In this document: positions 10,981 to 59,329 of the stretch, in pieces
How the letters are laid out: each line of letters begins with the position of its first letter
Position numbering within the stretch: the stretch's first letter is position 1
NCBI GenBank assembly: GCA_015039465.1
Contig: MU129998.1
Coordinates: 276,437-340,436 of the forward strand
DNA: 64,000 nt
Direction of reading: 5' to 3'
From: Phlegmacium glaucopus
Lineage: Eukaryota; Basidiomycota; Agaricomycetes; Agaricales; Cortinariaceae
The notes under the pieces: generated by a model
Told to the model about the DNA's origin: nothing
Database searches by the model: none
The model's input: the letters and a program-made list of their open reading frames with translations, nothing else
Position numbers and translations under genes: made by a program

Positions 10981-13900
10981 CTAAGATACTAGGAGGTGGG
11001 AAAAATATTTTGACAACTGATAATAAGGAGAATGAAAAATAATTGTCTTGTTGTAATGGCCAGTCAGGCTTGATGAGAAGTTTACAATGCTAATCCAGAA
11101 ACTATATTTGAGACCAAATGTTGAGCAATGAAGTGAATATACTGAGTAAAATCTAAAAATTGTGCATACCTCTAAAACCAAAACCTCTCCTGATATATAT
11201 CCAAGGAATATCTTAGACTGGTGATGACTGATGATTGATGGTTCACGGAAAGGAGGTGGAATCCAGATTTTCTGAAGGTTTTGGGTGTGGAATATGGTGT
11301 TTGCAGATATTTCAAGGAAGGATGGCTGGGATGAGAGATGAATGTCACAACAAGAATCTTTGAAGGTAAAAACACCATCAGGAAGTGGTGATACAACATG
11401 AAATTGAGTACTGTTAGATGAAGATGGAACAGAAGTGTGTTCTTTTAGCTCAGATTCACACTGTCCTGTGGCTGTATTCCAGATCCGTGTGGTGCAATCA
11501 TCAGATGCAGAGACAACATACATACCATCAGAAGAGAAGACAGCAGATATGACAGGGGATGAATGTCCCTTCAGCTCCACTTCACACTCTCCTGTGGCTG
11601 TATTCCAGATCCGTGCAGTGTGATCATGAGATGCAGAGACAATATGCATACCATCAGAAGAGAAGACAGCAGATGTGACCCAGTCTGAATGTCCTTTCAG
11701 CTGTGCTTTACACTCCCCTGTGGCTGTATTCCATATCCATGCAGTGTGATCATAAGATGCAGAGACAATATGCATACCATCAGGAGAGAAGGCAACAGAT
11801 GCAACTGAGTCTGAATGTCCTTTCAGCTCTGCTTCACATGCTCCTGTGGCTGTATTCCAGATCTGTGCAGTGTAATCATCAGATGCAGAGACAATATGCA
11901 TACCATCAGGAGAGAAGACAGCAGATGTGAACCAGGTTGAATCTCCTTTCAGCTCTGCTTCACACTCACCTGTGGCTGTACTCCAGATCCATGCAGTGTG
12001 ATCATAAGATGCAGACATAAGATGCATACCATCAGGTGAGAAGACAGCAGATCTGACTGAGGATGAATGTCCTTTGAGTTGTGCTTCACACTCTCCTGTG
12101 GCTGTATTCCAGATCCGTGCAGTGTGATCATTAGATGCAGTCACAATATGGATACCATCAGGAGAGATGACAGCAGATGTGACCCAGTTTGAATGTCCTA
12201 TTAGCTGTGCTTCACACTCTCCTGTGGCTGTATTCCAGATTCGTGCAGTGTGATCATGAGATGCAGATGCAATGTGTGTACCATCAGAAGAGAAGACAGC
12301 AGATATGAGCTGCCTTGAATGTCCTCTCAGCTCTGCTTCACACTCTCCTGTGGCTATATTCCAGAGCCGTGCAGTGTAATCATGAGATGCAAACAAAATA
12401 TGCATACCATCAGGAGAGAAGACAGCAGATATGCCATCAGAAGAGAAGACAGCAGATATGAGCTGCCTTGAATGTCCTCTCAGCTCTGCTTCACACTCTC
12501 CTGTGGCTGTATTCCAGCGCCGTGCAGTGTAATCATGAGATGCAGACAAAATATGCATACCATCAGGAGAGAAGACAGCAGACATGAGCCGCCTTGAATG
12601 TCCTCTCAGCTCTGCTTCACACTCTCCTGTGGCTGTATTCCAGATCCGTGCAGCATAACCAGATACAGATACAATATGCATACCATCAGGAGAGAAGACA
12701 GCAGATGTGACAGCAGATGAATGTCTTTTCAGCTCTGCTTCACACTCTCCTGTGGCTGTATTCCAGATCCGTGCAGTGCAATCATCAGATGCAGAGACAA
12801 TGTGCATACCATCAGAAGAGAAGACAGCAGATGTGACAGCAGACAAATGTCCTTTCAGCTCTGCTTCACACTCTCCTGTGGCTGTATCCCAGATCCGTGC
12901 AGTGTGATCAGAAGATGCAGACACAATATGCATACCATCTGGGGAGAAGACAGCAGACATGACTAATCCTAAATGTCCTTTCAGGTTTGCTTCACACTCT
13001 CCTGTGGTTGTATTCCAGATCCATGCAGCATGACCAGATACAGATACAATATGCATACCATCACCAGAGAAGACAGCACATTTGACACTATCTGAATGTC
13101 TCAGAACTGCTTCAGAAAGGCTCCATGCCTTCCTCCTCCCTACACAGAGCTTCCATTTACAGTCCATTCTACTTCCATATGTTTTCCAGATATTTGATTT
13201 TTCTGGCAGCCAAGCTAATGCTGATGGACATCCTTCAAGGCTATTTTTTTTGATGAAATCAAAATTTTCTTTTAAAAATCGTTCAGCATCAATCACCAAT
13301 GTGGCCAAGTCTTTTTCAGTCTAATTTCTATTGTAAGTGCAATTCATTGCAAGCAACAAGATCACTTACATTTACCCAATTTTCCAGCTTATATAGTGCA
13401 TGCATTGCAGTTTTCAACTTTCCTAAAATGCTCAAACAATCCATCCATCGCAGAAGATGTGTTTGAAAAAAGTGTTTCAACTTATCAGATCCATTGTTAT
13501 TGTCTGTGTAGATAAAGTGAAAGGCCCAGCTATCACATGCATATGCAAGAGCTTCAGAGATATCTTCATGTCTCCTCTCTGCCAAGTAGGCCACAACATT
13601 TTTTGTTGACCATTCTTTGTCCATCAATGACAGACACTGATATCCTAAGGATTTATGTGATGCATGAGGGTCAAGGTAGTGCTTTGAGGAAAGAATTTGA
13701 TTGCTGATGAAATCATGGAAGGAAGCATGCAGTATTGAGATGTGCTTAACAGGGTATTGAGGTGATGGAATATATATCAAAGAATGAAGGGAAGAAAGGG
13801 CATTCCTAACTTGTTCTATGGGCAATTGCACCAAAACACTGATGGCACTCATAGAAAGAGGATTATATACATATACAACAGCTTTAAGAACTATGCCTAT

Positions 13901-26630: not shown

Positions 26631-29600
26631 TTACATTGCTAATCCAGAAACTATATTTGAGAACAGATGTTCAGCAATGAAGTGAAAATCCTGAGTAAAG
26701 TATAAAAATTGTGCATACCTCTAAAACCAAAACCTCTCCTGATGTATATCCAAGGAATATCTTAGACAGATGTTGACTTATAATTTGTGGTTTGTGGAAA
26801 GGTGGTGGAATCCAGATTGTCTGAAGATTTTTGGTGTGGAAAATGGTGTTTTCAGATATTCCAAGGAAGGATGGTTGGACCGAGAGATGAATGTCACCAT
26901 AAGAATCTGTCCAAGTAAAAACACCATCAGGAAGTGGTAATACAACATGTGATTGAGTACTATGAGATGGAACAGAGGTATGTCCATTTAGCTCTGCTTC
27001 ACACTCTCCTGTGGCTTTCTTCCAGATCCATGCAGTGTGATCATTAGATGCAGACACAATATGCATACCATCATGAGAGGAGACAGAAGGTCTGATTGAG
27101 GATAAATGTCCTTTCAGCTCTGCTTCACACTGTCCTGAGGTTGTATTCCAGATGCGCACAGTGTGATCATCAGATGCAGACACAATATGCATACCATCAG
27201 AAGAGAAGAGAGCTGAATTGACTCGGTCTGAATAGTGATTTAGATCTGCTTCACATTTTCCTGAGGCTGTGTTCCATATCCTCATAATTTGATGGTAACA
27301 TATAGACATAATATGCCTACCATCAGGAGAGAAGACACCAGACTTGACAATAGTTGAATGTTTCAGAATTGATTCACACTGTCCCATGGCTGTATTCCAC
27401 ACTCGTGCAGTGTGATCATGAGATGTAGTCACAATATGCATACCATCAGGAGAGAAGACAGCAGAATTGAGTGACTCTGAATGTCCTTTCAGCTCTGCTT
27501 CACACTGTCCTGTGGCTGTATTCCAGATCCGTGCAGTGTGATCATAAGATGCAGACACAATATGCATACCATCAGGAGAGAAGACAGCAGAATTGACCTG
27601 GTATGAATGTCCTTTCAGCTCTGCTTCACACTCTCCTGTGCTGTGTTCCAGATCCGTGCAGTGTGATCATCAGAGGCAGTCACAATATACATACCATCAG
27701 GGGAAAAGACAGCAGAATTGACCAAGTCTGAATGTCCTTCCAGCTCTGTTTCACACTGTCCTGAGGCTGTATTCCAGATCTGTGCAGTGTGATCATTAGA
27801 TGAAGTCACAATATGGATGCCATCAGGAGAGAAGACAGCAGAATTGACCAAGTCTGAATGTCCTTTCAGCTCTGATTTACACTGTCCTGTGGCTGTATTC
27901 CAGATCCGTGCAGTGTGATCATTAGATGCAGACACAATATGCATACCATCAGAAGAGAAGACAGCAGAATTGACCTGGTATGAATGTCCTTTCAGCTCTT
28001 CTTCACACTGTCCTGAGGTTGTATCCCAGATCCGCACAGTGTGATCATCAGATGCAGTCACAATATGCATACCATCAGAAGAGAAGAGAGCAGAATTGAC
28101 TGAGTCTGAATGTCCTTTCAGCTCTGCTTCACACTGCCCTGAAGCTGTATTCCAGATCCATGCAGTTTCATCATTAGATGCAGTCACAATATACATACTA
28201 TCAGAAGAGAAGACAGCAGAATTGACTGAGTCTGAATGTCCTTTCAGCTCTGCCTCACACTGTCCTGTGGCTGTATTCCAGATCTGTGCAGTGTTATCAT
28301 CAGATGCAGTCACAATATGCGTGCTGTCAGGAGAGAAGACAGCAGAGTTGACCTGGTATGAATGTCCTTCCAGCTCTGCTTCACACTGTCCTGAGGCTGT
28401 ATTCCAGATCCGTGCAGTGTGATCATTAGATGCAGTCACAATATGAATACCATCAGGAGAGAAGACAGCAGAATTGACCCAGTGTGAATGTCCTTTCAGC
28501 TCTGCTTCACACTCTCCTGTGGCTGTATTCCAGATCTGTGCAGTGCAATCAGAAGATGCAGACACAATATGCATACCATCTGGAGAGAAGGCAGCAGACC
28601 TGACTGATCCTAAATGTCCTTTCAGCTCTGCCTCACACTCTCCTGTGGCTGTATTCCAGATCTGTGCAGTATGATCATTAGATGCAGACACAATGTACAT
28701 ACCATCAGGAGAGAAGACAGCAGAATTGACATTATTTGAATGTCTCAGAACTGCTTCAGATGGGCTCCATGCCTTTCTCCTTCCCACACAGAGCTTCCAT
28801 TGACAGTCTATTCTACTTCCATATGTTTTCCAGATATCTGATTTTTCTGGTAGCCAAGCTAATGCTGATGGACATCCCTCAAGGCTGTTTCTTTTAATAA
28901 AATCAAATTTTTCTTTTAAAAACCGTTCAGCATCAATCACCAATGTGGCCAAGTCTTTTTCAGTCTAATTGCTATTGTAAGTGCAATTCATATGCAGCAA
29001 CAAGATCACTTACATTTACCCAATTTTCCAGCTTATATAGTGCATGCATTGCAGTTCCCAGCTTTCCTAAAATACTCAAACAATCCATCCATCGCAGAAG
29101 ATGTGTTTGAAAAAAGTGTTTCAACTTATCAGATCCATTGCTATTGTCTGCATAGGTGAAGTGGAAGGCCCAGCTATCACAAGCATATGCAAGAGCTTCA
29201 GGAATATCTTCATGTCTCCTTTCTGCCAAGTATGACACAACTATGTTTGTTGACCATTCTTTGTCCATCAATGACAGACACTGATGTGCTAGGGAATTAT
29301 GTGAAGCATGAGGATCAAGGTGGTGCTTTGAGGAAAGAACTTGATTACTGATGAAATCATGGAAGGAAGCATGTAGTATTGAGATGTGCTTAACATGATG
29401 TTGAGATGATGGAATATATATCAAAGAATGAAGGGAAGAAAGTGTATTGTCAACTTGTTCTATGGGCAATTGCACCAAACCACTGATGGCACTCATAGAA
29501 AGAGGATTGTAGACATATACAACAGCTTGAAGAACTATGCGTATATCTGACCTTTCCCTAGGATTTGTAGAGTCATAGGCAGCATCCAAAATTCTTTTAT

Positions 29601-53142: not shown

Positions 53143-54352
53143 ATGTCCACTTGATCAAAACCCCAACTCACTGTTGAACAGATTCAAGAACTGCGAGCAA
53201 AGTTTACTCAATTCCGTATCCTCGTGGTCGGCCGAGCCAACGCGGGCAAGATAACAATCCTGCGAAGACTCTGCAACGCTACAGGAGAACCCATAATCTT
53301 CAGTCCGAATGGTAAAAAGGTGAAGTATATGGAGAAGGTTCATACTAGATATTGACTGACATCTATGCCCATGATCCCAGGTCAAATCATCGGCTCTTAA
53401 CCCAACGTCGGGGGTAAGCGGTTCCTGTACTAGTATTGGGTTACTCAATTAAAATCCTCACAACGCAGCGTGGAGAGCATGATATTAATAATCAAATGAT
53501 ATTTGAGAGCAATCCTGGTTTTATCTTTCATGATTCCCCTGGTTTTGAAGCTGGCAGTGCTCAAGAGTCGAAGTTGGTACAGGAATTTATTAAGGAGCGT
53601 TCAAGAGCAAAAAATGTGAAGGAGCAACTTCATGCAATCTGGTGTGTTAGTCCTTGCCTCTAGGGAACAACTTTCTTCACAGAGAAATAGGTACTGCATT
53701 CCAACAAGCGATGACTGGCCAATCACTGCAGCAGAGAGGAAGTTTTTCAATGAATGTGACAGGGCTTGGTATGTGTTGTCTTAGATATATCTTATTGCGA
53801 AAGATGACTGTGAAGTACCAGTGATTGTCTTGTGAACTAAGACTGACTCTCTTGATGTTGCTAAAATCAGGCAACTCATGAAGGAAGGAAATAGTAGGGC
53901 TGTGGCAATTCAACAAGCTCCCCAAAAAGCTTGGACTGATTTTGAACAGAGTATTCATCAACAGTTTGAAGAGTTTAAATATCCACCTAAGGCATATGTT
54001 ATCTTTTGAAGTAAGTGTTATACTTCTTAGTAATAATTTGGCTAATTATGTGATGTAGAAATGCATGAGCCTGGAGCAGATTGTAAAGATTTGATTGAAA
54101 AAACAACAACTGCACTCTCTAGTGAAGAATTACAACAGCTCTTTCTTTCAACACAGCAAAACAATGCTGAGTTTTGTGTTGCATATGGAATTAGAAGGTA
54201 GGGAACCATTACTGTTTAAATTTACCACATTAACATGATTTTTAGAAGTGTAAACAAGGCAGATTTCACTCTGTTGGAATATTTTAAGAAGAATAAAAGA
54301 GAGGGGGCAGATATTATGGCAATTGTACTGGGATATTTTCCACAAATTGTGG
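53143..54352 (+). pseudogene. AIG1/P-loop GTPase-like gene, degenerate, 5' of a microexon-like array
   Basis: Reads as a G-domain protein of the family common in Agaricomycetes. ATG 53143 is followed by MST and an in-frame TGA. Then come QFRILVVGRANAGK-I-TIL (P-loop, with Ile where the Mg-binding Ser/Thr should be), FIFHDSPGFEAGS (switch II/G3), WYCIPTSDDWPITAAE, VPVIVL-stop-TKTDSLD (G4 with a TGA just before it), PPKAYVIF, MHEPGADC and an all-helical C-terminal part. Intron signals are good throughout (e.g. 53320 and 53730 regions; AATAG acceptor restoring WYCIP). The last recognisable exon ends ...GYFPQIV at 54352 in phase 0, directly at a GTATGT donor whose next acceptor is unit 1 of the array. 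Three lesions suggest a pseudogene unless read-through or another splice form exists. Confidence 0.65.
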
Positions 54353-57300
54353 TATGTATTTGGTCACATCATGATAAACCATTGACAACTGATTGAGTTG
54401 TGCAGAGTGTTATCTTGAGCATTTAGTGCTCAAAAACTGGACTAACATGTATTTTGACAGTGTGTATGTAGGAAAGATTCATCATTATATTATCTGGCTG
54501 ATTACCATGCTTTTCTCTGACAGGTTGTAAGTGCAGGACCATCTTGGTCTGCCTTGACTCTAGCTTACTTTTTTAACAGTTAGTAAGTGCAAGACCATCT
54601 TGATATGCCTTGACTCTAGCTTACTTTGGACAGAATGTAAGTACAAAACTATCTTGATCAGCCTTGACTCTGGCCTACTCTTTGACAGATGGTAAGTGCA
54701 AGACCATCTTGATCTGCATTTACTCTAGCTTACTCTTTTGACAGGATGTAAGTGCAAGACCATCTTGGTCTGCCTTGGCTCTAGCTTACTATTTTGACAG
54801 TTGGTAAGTGCAAGATTATCTTGACCTTGCCTTGCATCTGGCTTACTCTTTGACAGGAGGTAAGGGCAAGACCATCTTGACCTGCCTTGACTCTAGCTTA
54901 CTCTTTTAACAGGAAGTAAGTGCAAGATCATCTTGACCTGCGTTGACTCTAGCTTACTCTTTTGACAGTTAGTAAGTGCAAAACCATCTTGATCTGCCCT
55001 GACTTTAGTTTACTCTTTTGACAGTTGGTAAGTACAAGACCATCTTGATCTGCCTTGACTCTAGTTTACTCTTTTGACAGTTGGTAAGTGCAAGATCATC
55101 TTGACTGCCTTGATGCTGGCTTACCCTTTTAACAGTGGGTAAGTGCAGGATCATCCTTGATCTACCTTGACTCTGGCTTACTCTTTGATAGAATGTAAGT
55201 GTAGGACCACCTTGATCTGCCTTGACTCTAGCTTATTCTTTTGACAGATGGTAAGAGCAAGATCATTTTGATCTGCCTTGACTTTAGCTTATTCTTTTGA
55301 AGTGGGTAAGTGTAGGATCATCTTGATCTGCCTTGACTCTGGCTCAGTCTTTTGATAGGATGTAAGTGCAGGACCATCTTGATCTGCCTTGACTCTAGTT
55401 CTTGACTCTAGTTTACTCCTTTTACAGATGGTAAGAGCAAGATCATTTTTATCTGCCTTGCCTTTAGCTTACTCTTTTGACAGTAGGTAAGGGCTGGATC
55501 ATCTTGATCTGACTTGACTCTGGTTTAGTCTTTTAATAGGATGTAAGTGCAAGACCACCTTGATCTGCTTGACTGTAGCTTACTCTTTAACAGACAGTAA
55601 GTGCAGCCTTGCTGCCTTGGCTCTAGCTTACTCTTTTGACAGTTAGTAAGTGCAAGACTATCTTGATCTGCCTTGACTGTAGCTCACTCTTTTGACAGGA
55701 TGTAAGTGCAAGACCACCTTGATTTACCTTGAATCTAGCTTACTTTTTTGACAGTTGGTAAGTGAAAGACCATCTTGATCTGCCTTGACTCTAGCTTACT
55801 CTTTTTACAGAGGGTAAGTGCAATACCATCTTTATCTGCCTTGACTCTAGCTTACTCTTTTGATAGATGGTAAGCACAAGATCATTGTGATCTGCCTTGA
55901 CTCTAGTTTACTCTTTTCACAGATGGTAAATACAAGACCATCTTGATCTGCATTGACTCTGGCTTAGTCTTTTAATAGGTAGTAAGTGCAGGACAATCTT
56001 GATCTGCCTCAATCTAGCTCATTCTTTTGATAGGAGGTAAGTGCAAGACTATCATGATCTGCCTAAACTCTAACTCACTTTTTTGACAGAATGTGAGTGC
56101 AAGATCATCTTGATCTGCCTTGACTGTACCTTACTACTTTGACAGTTGGTAAGCACAAGATAATCTTGATCTGTGGTGACTCTACCTTACTCATTTCACA
56201 GAGAGTAAGTGCCAGACCATCTTAATCTGCCTTGACTCTTGCTTACCTTTTGACAGGATGTAAGTGAAAGACATCTTAATCTGCCCTTGACTCTAGCCTT
56301 ACTCTTTGACAGTTGGTAAGTGCATGACTATCTTGATCTGCTTTGACTCTAGTTTACTCTTTTGACAGAAGGTAGGTGCAAGACAACCCTGATCTCTCTT
56401 GACTGTAGCTTACTCTTTTGACAGACTGTGAGTGCAGAACCATCTTGATTCTGCCTTGACTCTTACTCACTCTTTGATAGAGGGTAAGTACAAGACCATC
56501 TTAATCTGCCTTGAATCCAGCTTACTCTTTTGACAGGCAGTAAGTGTAGGACTACATTGATCTACTTTGGCTCTGGCTTACCTTTTTGATAGGATGTAAG
56601 TGCAAGGCCATCTTAATCTGCATTGACCCTAGCTTATTTGTTTGGCAGATAGTAAGTGAAACACTATCTTAATCTGCCTTGACTCTGGCTTATTCTTATG
56701 ACAGACAGTAAGTGCAGGACCATCTTAATCTGACTTGACTCTACCTTATTCCTTTGGCAGGCAGTAAGTGCAGAGCCACCTTGATCTGCCTTGACTCTAC
56801 CTTATTCTTTTAACAGAATGTAAGGGCAGGGCCATCTTAATCTTGCTTGACTCTAGCTTATTATTTTAACAGAGAGTGAGTGCATGACCAGCTTGATCTG
56901 CATTGACTCTAGCTTACTCTTTTCAAAGATGGTAAGAGCAAGTCTTTCTTAATCTGCCTTAACTCTGGCTTATTCTTTTGATAGAGAGTGAGTGCAAGAC
57001 ATTTTGATCTGCCTTTACTCTGGCTAACTCTTCCACAGGATGTAAGTGCAAGACTTTCTTTACCTGCCTTGAATATGGCTTACTCCTTGGACAGGAAGTG
57101 AGTTCAAGACCACCTTGATCTGCCTTGATGTAGCTTACTCCTTTGACAGCTGGTAAGTGCAAGACTATCTTGATCCTGCCTTGACTCTAGCTTACTCTGT
57201 TGACAGTTGGTAAGTGCATGACCATCTTAGTCTGCCTTGAGTCTAGATTTCTCTTTTGACAGAAAGTGAGTGCAAGACAATTTTGATCTGCTATGACTCA

Positions 57301-58110
57301 AGCTTACTCTTTTGACAGGGTGTAAGTGCAAGACCCCCTTGACATCATCTGCCTTGACACTAGCTTACTCTTTTGACAGGGTGTAAGTGCAATACCATCT
57401 TGATCTGCCTTGCTCTTGCTCATTCTTTTCACAGATGGTAAGTGCAAGGCCATCTTGTTCTGCCTTGGCTCTGCTTACTCTTTTGACAGGATGTAAGTGC
57501 AAGACCATTTTGATCTGCCTTCACCCTACCTTACTCTTTTGACAGACAGTGAGTACAAATACCATCTTGATCTATCTTGACTGTACCTTACTCTTTTAAT
57601 AGGAGGTAAGCACAAGGCCATTTTCATTTGCCTTGACTCTAGCTTAATCTTTTGGCAGGCAGTAAGTGCAAGACCATCTTAATCTGCCTTGACTCTAGCT
57701 TACTCTTTTCACAGTTGGTAAGTGCAAGACCATCCTGATCTGACTTTCTATAGCTTATTCCTTTAACAGTTGGTAAGTGCAAGGTGGTCTTGATCTGTTT
57801 TGACTCTAGCCTACTCTTTTCACAGTTGGTAAGTGCATGACAATCTTGATCTGCCTTGACTCTAGCTTATTCTTGTGGCAGATTGTAAGTGCAAGACCAT
57901 CTTCATCTACCTCAACTCTAGCTTACCTTTTTGACAGAGAGTAAGTGCAACACCATATCAATCTGCCTTGCATCTAGCTCATTTTTTCCACAGAGAGTAA
58001 GTACATGACCATCTTGATCAGCCTTGAGTCTAGCTTATTATTTTCACAGAGAGTAAGTGCAAGACTGTCTTGATCAACACTGAGTCTAGCTTACTCTTTT
58101 GATAGAGAGT
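54353..58110 (+). repeat. Tandem array of ~66 intron-like units separated by 3-nt microexon-like triplets
   Basis: Period 56 bp (for example triplets at 54745, 54801, 54857, 54913, 54969, 55025 and 55081). Consensus unit: GTAAGTGCAAGACCATCTTG, then ATCTGCCTTGACTCTAGC, then TTACTCTTTTGACAG, then three free bases. Each unit is a complete 53-nt intron: GTAAG donor, CTTAC/CTGAC-like branch site, pyrimidine tract, YAG acceptor. The distance AG to next GT is exactly 3 in all units I read, although spacing between units varies from 49 to 69 because introns carry indels. Acceptors are CAG, TAG or AAG, never GAG; donors are GTAAG, GTGAG, rarely GTATG/GTAGG/GTAAA. 56 is not a multiple of 3, so the unspliced array has no long frame. 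It follows a GTPase-like exon in sense orientation. Confidence 0.9.
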
Positions 58111-59046
58111 AAGTACAAGCACAGAGAAGTCATTATCATTCAGTCATCTTCCTCTATTACTGTCTATTTTCTTGGTATGTGTTTGATGACAGGAAGTATG
58201 TGCAAGAGAGCTATAATTATTAATTTCCAATCTCTTACTAATGTTACAATGTAATTGGACAGTATGTAAGTGCATAGTGTAAGGAAAGTAATTCCCTTAC
58301 GATTGAACAATGGACCCATAATATATTACCAGAATGGGATAGGGCCACCAGACGGCCCAACGAAGCATGTTATATTTAGTGTATGCCACACACATTTTCT
58401 CTCATTGTCCTATTTACTTAAAATACTGGACTTTTGTACCGTAATAAATCAGTTGAATACTCCCCCGTAAAATTCATTCTCAAAGAGCTCAGACACGAGT
58501 TCTACTTTTATTTCTATTTACAAAACACAGGTAGTCTATTTCGGAGTAACGAAAGTCCGTTACCGAAAGGAGCTTGTGCTAGTAATTCAGAAACTCGAAA
58601 CAATTCATCCCGAAAACTCTTGCTGCTTGAAACATTTGAGGACGGAGTCCTTGACCTCTCGCATTAATATATAATACCTATTTCTACGGTAGTACAAACT
58701 ACTGCATCACAATAGGCCATATTATTATTATTACTAACCCAATTGGCATATTATTTGGGCAGCATGCATGTTGGAGATGTTATCTCTATCATTTACTTCA
58801 TGACATACATTTGTCAACAGACTGTATGTGCAAACAGTTTGTGATCAGTCTTTTTCTCTACTTATGGAGTGCCATTATTTATAGAGGGTAAGTATTACAA
58901 GTACTCTTAATATTGTTTTTTACCCTGTAACAACATTTGGTGATTATTTTTTTTACATCATTGCCATCTTTATACTCAATTTTATTTATTCAGTTTTCAT
59001 ATATTTCAATGTTTAGGATACCATTTCTGAAATCACATCATCTATT
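58111..59046 (+). other. Diverged microexon-like units 67-70 and a 30-nt candidate exon
   Basis: Outside the homogeneous array the AG-NNN-GT pattern occurs four more times: GAA at 58193, TAT at 58263, ACT at 58821 and AGG at 58885, each with a GTAAG or GTATG donor. A 30-nt segment at 59017-59046 (TTTAG acceptor, ten codons DTISEITSSI, GTGAGT donor) is the next conventional exon candidate and keeps phase 0. A 434-bp insertion (58278-58711) splits this stretch. Confidence 0.5.
58278..58711. mobile_element. LTR-like insertion with ATAG flanks
   Basis: Ends TGTAAGG...CATCACA (TG...CA), flanked by ATAG at 58274-58277 and 58712-58715. Base composition and codon-free sequence differ from the array on both sides, and array-type spacing resumes after it. 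Perhaps a solo LTR; a 4-bp duplication is shorter than the usual 5. Confidence 0.5.
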
Positions 59047-59329
59047 GTGAGTATCTGCACTCTGGAAATGTAAAAAATGACAAATGTATTTTCAAAATTT
59101 CAAGCTTACTGGCCTATCTACCAACATGAACTTAACAGAAACTGCATATTGTGCAATTGGCATGCATCTGATTCAACTTTCTTTTCTATACTCTCTATAT
59201 TGACTTTTCTATTAGTTGCTGCCATTCTTGGCCACTTGTCTTTCTTTCTTCACACAGAATCACCACATAAAACTGACTCTTTGGAAAGAGCTGTCCAAAT
59301 TTACCAGTAATCAACTTGTGACACCTCTG

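What the first reader, a model, noticed from the sequence alone, without database searches (positions are those of the whole stretch)
54353..58110. Array of about 66 three-nucleotide microexon candidates between 53-nt introns
Seen: each 56-bp unit is a full small intron and every unit is joined to the next by AG-NNN-GT, with exactly three bases between acceptor and donor (70 of 70 units including four outliers downstream, read by eye). Unit spacing varies from 49 to 69 bp, so indels are tolerated inside introns but never inside the AG-NNN-GT window. A plain minisatellite would not protect these four bases while leaving the three between them almost free. Inference: one-codon microexons, or a chain of recursive splice sites, that can be included or skipped without changing frame. 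I know of no described system like this.
Basis: partly seen in the sequence, partly recalled or inferred. Interest (0 to 1): 0.95.

Follow-up and report, generated by a model that had tools for sequence, protein, structure and literature searches.

The report
Protein segment spliced codon by codon
In a mushroom genome, dozens of related GTPase genes appear to encode a highly variable stretch of their protein one amino acid per exon, each codon sitting alone between two small introns; this bears on how small an exon can be and on how variable proteins evolve.

Summary
Confirmed, and much larger than reported. The window array (65 codons, 54524-58108) is one of about 40 with the same intron at the same place in a GTPase gene family, probably of Phlegmacium (Cortinarius) glaucopus. 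Over 939 units the AG and GT around each codon are nearly invariant; donor T changes only to C (19 GC donors). The three bases between are almost free, yet 930 codons hold 1 stop where 79 are expected, and that one lies in the window copy, a pseudogene. Distant paralogues have one-codon-exon arrays at the corresponding place with three other, dissimilar intron families. Ten environmental contigs that look like cDNA read through this place as an uninterrupted hypervariable peptide; in 8 of 8 of one subfamily it follows a motif ([DHEY]Y[GED]KTE) that here is split over exons of 3, 3, 9 and 3 nt. So dozens of single-codon exons are most likely spliced into one variable protein segment. Young arrays show growth by duplication of intron plus codon, and codons that differ while introns stay identical. 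Function is unknown. Against: no RNA of this strain; one cDNA-like contig retains the first array intron; some gene models skip the array; peptide order shows no periodicity.

The parts
53143..54351 (+). Seven upstream exons of the GTPase gene copy (53143-53319, 53381-53413, 53469-53641, 53691-53768, 53816-54010, 54059-54197, 54246-54351). Broken here: in-frame stops (for example codon 4), a 2-nt shorter fourth exon.
   Evidence: Aligned with paralogues, splice boundaries shared; 21 of 25 paralogous upstream parts are open, the window's is not.
54461..54463 (+). First single-codon exon (TGT), before the regular array; variable codon in paralogues
   Evidence: GACAG-TGT-GTATGT; 24 paralogous copies read at this place, codons TAT, CAT, AAT, CAA, CGT and others, none a stop.
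54524..58108 (+). Array of 65 single-codon exons (NNN) in 56-bp units, separated by introns of about 53 nt
55484..55486 (+). Codon TAG: the only stop among 930 codons of the 53-nt class; sits in a three-unit duplication (ATG TGG GAT / ATG TAG GAT)
58193..58887 (+). Downstream single-codon exons GAA 58193-58195, TAT 58263-58265, CAT 58763-58765 (GC donor), ACT 58821-58823, AGG 58885-58887; all but GAA have counterparts in paralogues, with introns unlike the array intron
59017..59046 (+). 30-nt exon (counterpart of DSISKIMSPI in paralogues)
   Evidence: present in transcripts P0018 and P0121.
59105..59159 (+). Exon ending ..YCAI with a GC-AG intron after it; end set from P0002/P0018/P0121
   Evidence: Read from sequence.
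59216..59310 (+). Start of last exon (hydrophobic stretch and C-terminal part), cut by an in-frame TAA in this copy

Best explanation
The array is a chain of constitutive single-codon exons. The spliceosome removes each intron of about 53 nt as an ordinary short fungal intron (GTAAGT donor, CTTAC-like branch site, CAG acceptor) and joins dozens of one-codon exons in phase 0, inserting a peptide of roughly 8 to 97 residues between the GTPase domain and a conserved C-terminal part. Because a duplicated unit is one whole intron plus one whole codon, the array can grow or shrink by one residue at a time without shifting the frame; the codons then diversify, so every gene copy carries a different peptide. 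Shown: sequence constraint, stop avoidance, recurrence with other introns, growth by unit duplication in one young array. Inferred: splicing of every unit in this species, translation, and any role in variable recognition.
For: (1) 930 codons in 25 arrays hold 1 stop, 78.7 expected with positions shuffled within arrays (lowest of 300 shuffles 62); the one stop is in the broken window copy. Other phases hold 56 and 156 stops. (2) AG and GT nearly invariant; donor T goes to C 19 times, to A or G never, against 67% C at other T positions (chance 5e-4); all 19 GC donors read GCAAGT, against 772 of 909 GT donors with AAGT. (3) GT inside the codon 59 against 181 expected. (4) 21 of 25 upstream and 18 of 21 downstream parts of paralogues are open, 15 both. 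(5) The same layout with dissimilar introns: 73 nt (25, 20, 41 codons), 56 nt (about 50, 55, 61), 66 nt, about 64 nt (41), no stops. (6) Contigs P0018 and P0121 read FPH/N-..-[42-51 variable residues]-..MSxxL with the second variable residue V or I as in the genome; 8 of 8 contigs of the 56-nt subfamily carry [DHEY]Y[GED]KTE followed by 19-40 or so variable residues, where L033 has exons GAT, TAT, GGGAAAACG, GAG then the array. (7) A gene model of this species, P0002, holds 20 of 25 residues I predict for L024 in the same order.
Against: No RNA of this strain was available. That the contigs are cDNA is inferred from uninterrupted reading across conserved intron places, and their genes' exon structure is unknown; two of the eight (P0132, P0134) seem to keep an upstream intron in frame. 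P0003, a cDNA-like contig, reads into the first array intron, as do gene models P0001 and P0004. Gene models P0129, P0137, P0155 and the second half of P0002 jump the array or lack it. Peptides show no helical or strand periodicity (combined Z -0.53 and 1.37 over 29 arrays), so a fixed fold is not supported. The window copy is a pseudogene. L039 has a 2-nt exon and five class-1 units have 4 or 6 nt.
Confidence: 0.88

Rival explanations
1. A non-coding minisatellite inside one long intron: the whole array is removed as a single piece or left in transcripts, and the splice-like words are a by-product of the repeat.
For: Gene models P0129, P0137, P0155 and part of P0002 jump the region; P0003, P0001 and P0004 end just inside it.
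Against: A non-coding repeat gives no reason for 1 stop where 79 are expected in one phase only, for GC as sole donor variant, for avoidance of GT in the codon, or for the same layout with dissimilar introns; and ten contigs carry a peptide.
Confidence: 0.05
2. Introner-like spread: one intron element inserted again and again between the codons of an already variable coding stretch.
For: Codons are not correlated with intron similarity; introns look like independent copies of one consensus, about 5 of 53 bases away, with variants nearly unlinked; runs of repeated codons are hardly above chance (22 against 18.0).
Against: Insertion would not leave exactly one codon in phase 0 between nearly all neighbours; L038 shows units duplicated together with their codon (10 of 11 GAT, 9 introns identical), and L032 a six-unit block.
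Confidence: 0.15
3. Growth by duplication of intron plus codon, then unusually fast change of codons alone, by strong diversifying selection or by mutation aimed at the codon.
For: L030: 11 consecutive 73-nt introns identical, 12 codons of 6 kinds (at least 8 changes in 36 bases, none in 803). L039: identical 66-nt introns with GGT, GAT, CGA, CAT, CTT between, while its relative L038 still has GAT throughout.
Against: Some older duplicate units keep both codons while introns differ by 3 to 10 variants (L018, L027, L016), so codons are not always fast; the assembly of near-identical repeats may be imperfect (assembly gap in L035); intron-only homogenisation would give the same picture.
Confidence: 0.5
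4. The variable peptide is a tolerated spacer with no recognition role; only stops and mis-splicing are selected against.
For: No periodicity; any residue seems allowed; no similarity of peptides between copies.
Against: Codon identity within a locus is above shuffled (8.0 against 5.7%, sd 0.19), and codons differ where introns do not; arrays persist in several subfamilies.
Confidence: 0.35

Closest known systems
Single 3-nt microexons (Drosophila homothorax micro-Ex8; two 3-nt exons in lipS of Dactylellina)
   Same: Exon of exactly one codon spliced into mRNA (PMC7392893, passages; PMC5639578, one passage).
   Different: One or two per gene there; here dozens in a row, in tandem units, in many gene copies.
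Aphid bicycle genes
   Same: Fast-evolving protein families made of many small exons of one phase, expanded in number (PMC9168663, passages).
   Different: Passages give about 17 exons on average, phase 2, and one gene with over 100 microexons; here phase 0, 3 nt, tandem homologous introns, and a GTPase scaffold.
Schistosome micro-exon genes (MEGs)
   Same: Protein variation linked to tiny exons (PMC4350168, passages); symmetric exons of 6 to 36 nt are recalled, not read.
   Different: Recalled exon sizes are larger; no tandem intron arrays known to me.
Introner-like elements in fungi
   Same: Many near-identical spliceosomal introns in one genome (PMC4457414, abstract).
   Different: Those are dispersed over genes; these lie head to tail in one gene family with one codon between.
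Recursive splicing sites
   Same: Acceptor directly followed by a donor (recalled).
   Different: Here three coding bases stay between them.
Trichoderma Xlr2 microexon
   Same: A functional microexon in a filamentous fungus; the abstract says none had been described before in filamentous fungi (PMC11121469, passages).
   Different: One regulated exon.

Membership tests
Single-codon microexon | exactly 3 nt between a used acceptor and a used donor | tested here: inconclusive
   Sites present in 930 of 939 units; use inferred from constraint and from contigs, no RNA of this strain.
Single-codon microexon | phase-0 coding constraint | tested here: met
   1 stop of 930 against 78.7 expected.
Introner-like elements | near-identical introns dispersed over unrelated genes | tested here: not met
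   Of 41 clusters by eye in 150 listed of 308 matches, those fetched (25 stretches) lie in one gene family; unfetched ones not checked one by one.
Introner-like elements | target-site duplication or insertion signature | not tested
   No array-less allele at hand.
Minisatellite | tandem units of fixed period | tested here: met
   TRF period 56.
Minisatellite | no position-specific protection in the unit | tested here: not met
   AG and GT kept, NNN free.
Bicycle or MEG-like families | many tiny exons of one phase in an expanded, fast-changing family | tested here: met
   phase and size differ from those families.
Bicycle or MEG-like families | sequence homology or secretion | tested here: not met
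   Pfam hit is MMR_HSR1 GTPase (22.9 bits, cut-off 21.9); secretion not examined.
Fungal G-domain GTPases (TRAFAC-like) | P-loop GxxxxGKT and relatives among Agaricomycete G-domain proteins | tested here: met
   GRANAGKTT; 367 proteins at E<=0.001, listed names from Laccaria, Pisolithus, Suillus and others.

The most novel reading that the evidence does not exclude
A hypervariable, receptor-like protein segment is assembled by the spliceosome one residue at a time. Duplication of an intron-plus-codon unit is a frame-safe engine that adds residues, and the codons then change much faster than the neutral introns around them, giving each of dozens of GTPase genes a private peptide; skipping of units could add isoforms. 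The layout arose with at least four dissimilar introns in one gene superfamily, and so is itself favoured.
Probability: 0.3. Interest if true: 0.98.

Novelty: categorically new. Interest (0 to 1): 0.95.

Why it matters
If true, a whole protein segment is coded with one codon per exon, up to 97 in a row, which sets a new extreme for exon size and number under intron definition and asks how a spliceosome works through tens of consecutive short introns without skipping. It shows a way to lengthen a coding region by one residue at a time without frameshift. It makes diversity generation in a fungal, possibly immune-like, GTPase family directly testable, and it means that gene models of such families in mushrooms are wrong in their most variable part. 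Ten of ten literature searches made here listed no description of such arrays; the library holds only open-licence papers.

Tried and rejected
A further candidate exon AGT (TGTAG-AGT-GTTATC, before the first single-codon exon) was rejected: L010, L012 and L023 break it.

My first end of the 46-nt exon was wrong; P0002, P0018 and P0121 show that it runs on to ..YCAI and is followed by a GC-AG intron.

The chain search put a false AAA as third member in L032, L033 and L037; the true exon there is the 9-nt GGGAAAACR. The 169 codons of the 56-nt class thus include 3 false ones, and the total of 1225 should read 1222; no stop is affected.

I first took the 56-nt and 66-nt introns as unrelated; one search shows that they are related (z 5.2, 0 of 300 shuffles), whereas the other nine pairs of intron families are not above shuffled (z -1.2 to 1.1, one consensus or medoid each).

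L035 looked array-less, but an assembly gap of N lies where the array would be.

No intron-less copy of the array subfamily was found among 144 exon matches (capped candidates). Structure prediction of P0121 was useless (mean pLDDT 38.7). Zero-difference intron pairs proved a weak test, because most are simply both at consensus. P0005 does not reach the array and P0123 seems genomic.

Full report
WHAT IS THERE. The window lies on contig C8 (276437-340436) of a 60.5-Mb genome in 259 contigs. Proteins named Phlegmacium glaucopus match it, and several of their contig lengths equal those here (459859, 880866, 195706, 108199), others do not; I take the species as probable. The array holds 65 AG-NNN-GT joints with codons at 54524-58108, plus single-codon candidates on both sides.

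IT IS A GENE FAMILY. The first 548 bases of the array have 308 matches in the genome, of which 150 were listed; by eye these fall into 41 clusters, a few perhaps one array. A C-terminal exon gives 47 matches, some of them split. I fetched 20 loci of 10 kb and used four shorter ones. Alignment of 25 stretches, window included, gives one gene plan: seven upstream exons (P-loop GRANAGKTT), a single-codon exon, the array, four single-codon exons with unlike introns, a 30-nt exon and two more. The upstream part is open in 21 of 25, the downstream part in 18 of 21, both in 15. Of 249 splice pairs in the 21 models, 239 are GT-AG or GC-AG; the other 10 lie in downstream parts of L009, L011 and L026 that did not align. 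The window copy is broken.

THE UNITS ARE CONSTRAINED AS INTRONS AND CODONS. See the observation check for columns. Arrays run from 8 hits (three short or cut stretches) to 97 (L019). In phase 0 the 930 codons of exact length hold 1 stop, 78.7 expected; all 32 arrays hold 1 in 1225 (1222 after correction), 94.1 expected, and none outside the window. The 73-nt, 56-nt and ~64-nt classes alone have small expectations (5.9, 9.1, 0.5). NNC is almost absent (1 of 937), as are CGN and NCG, which fits loss of CpG; this is inference. Interior C and G positions differ from consensus at 13-15%, A and T at 6-7%, as for neutral sequence.

THE SAME PLAN WITH OTHER INTRONS. Relatives at about 48% identity (P0014 group) have arrays with a 73-nt intron: L029, L030, L031 with 25, 20 and 41 codons. 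L032, L033, L037 have a 56-nt intron with about 50, 55 and 61 true members; L036 has 41 members with introns only 64% alike; shuffled controls of the chain search reach at most 3 members. L038 and L039 have a 66-nt intron related to the 56-nt one. L034 shows no array, L035 has a gap.

EVIDENCE FROM TRANSCRIPTS. No RNA of this strain is held. Two JGI contigs (P0018, 1373 bp; P0121, 955 bp) read without break across several intron places and carry 42 to 51 unlike residues exactly between the GTPase part and the counterpart of the 30-nt exon. A search with a composite of L033 gave 69 proteins; I fetched 16 of them. Eight JGI contigs of 1.0-1.6 kb carry [DHEY]Y[GED]KTE followed by a variable stretch and a conserved end (seven by regex, P0128 by eye). 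In L033 and L037 this motif is coded GAT, TAT, GGGAAAACR, GAG; in L032 the last is GAT; in L038 the third reads GGGAGAACG. Hence the first two single-codon exons of that subfamily correspond to residues that are in natural mRNAs of relatives. Against this stand P0003 (intron kept), P0001 and P0004 (models ending there) and models that jump the array (P0129, P0137, P0155, part of P0002).

HOW IT GROWS. L038: 10 of its first 11 codons are GAT and 9 of its 14 introns are identical, so units were duplicated with their codon. L032 repeats six codons in order with introns 93-100% alike. Yet L030 and L039 have identical introns and different codons: in L030 at least 8 changes in 36 codon bases and none in 803 intron bases; if all sites changed alike the chance is about 1e-11 (my arithmetic, not a run test). 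In older arrays codons are unrelated to intron similarity, with partial exceptions: 75 intron pairs sharing rare variants, 30 of them in one locus, have 10 left and 14 right codons identical. Peptides of copies that are 90% identical elsewhere are unlike. I cannot decide between fast codon change after duplication and homogenisation of introns alone.

FUNCTION. Position between a GTPase domain and a hydrophobic C-terminal part, privacy of each peptide, and large copy number suggest variable recognition; this is inference. Peptides show no periodicity and the structure model failed.

LITERATURE. Ten searches listed no such array. Passages were read in PMC9168663, PMC4350168, PMC11121469, PMC5639578, PMC12308204 and PMC7392893, the abstract in PMC4457414. 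Lone 3-nt exons are known, in fungi too.

Noticed in passing
window 58284-58700: The intron after TAT 58263 holds a dispersed repeat of at least 417 bases, 98-99% identical to three other places and with 38 matches in the genome; probably a recent insertion in the broken copy.
   Followed up: partly
window 11438-13087 and 26980-28730: Two blocks of 126-bp tandem repeats (12.9 and 13.9 copies) that look like WD40-repeat coding sequence on the minus strand, by eye.
   Followed up: no
L039 (rc) near 2180: A 2-nt exon (AG-GA-GTGAGT) among identical 66-nt introns: a frameshift, a pseudogene or an assembly fault.
   Followed up: no
L024/L026, contig C237: Gene model P0002 fuses two neighbouring array genes: array peptide of the first, array of the second skipped.
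   Followed up: partly
last intron of the 53-nt family (window 59160-59215): A conserved GC-AG intron (G|GCATGC) in the C-terminal part, supported by P0002, P0018 and P0121.
   Followed up: partly
L036: Additional 3-nt joints at 1328-2166 upstream of the 41-codon chain suggest that the array there is longer.
   Followed up: no
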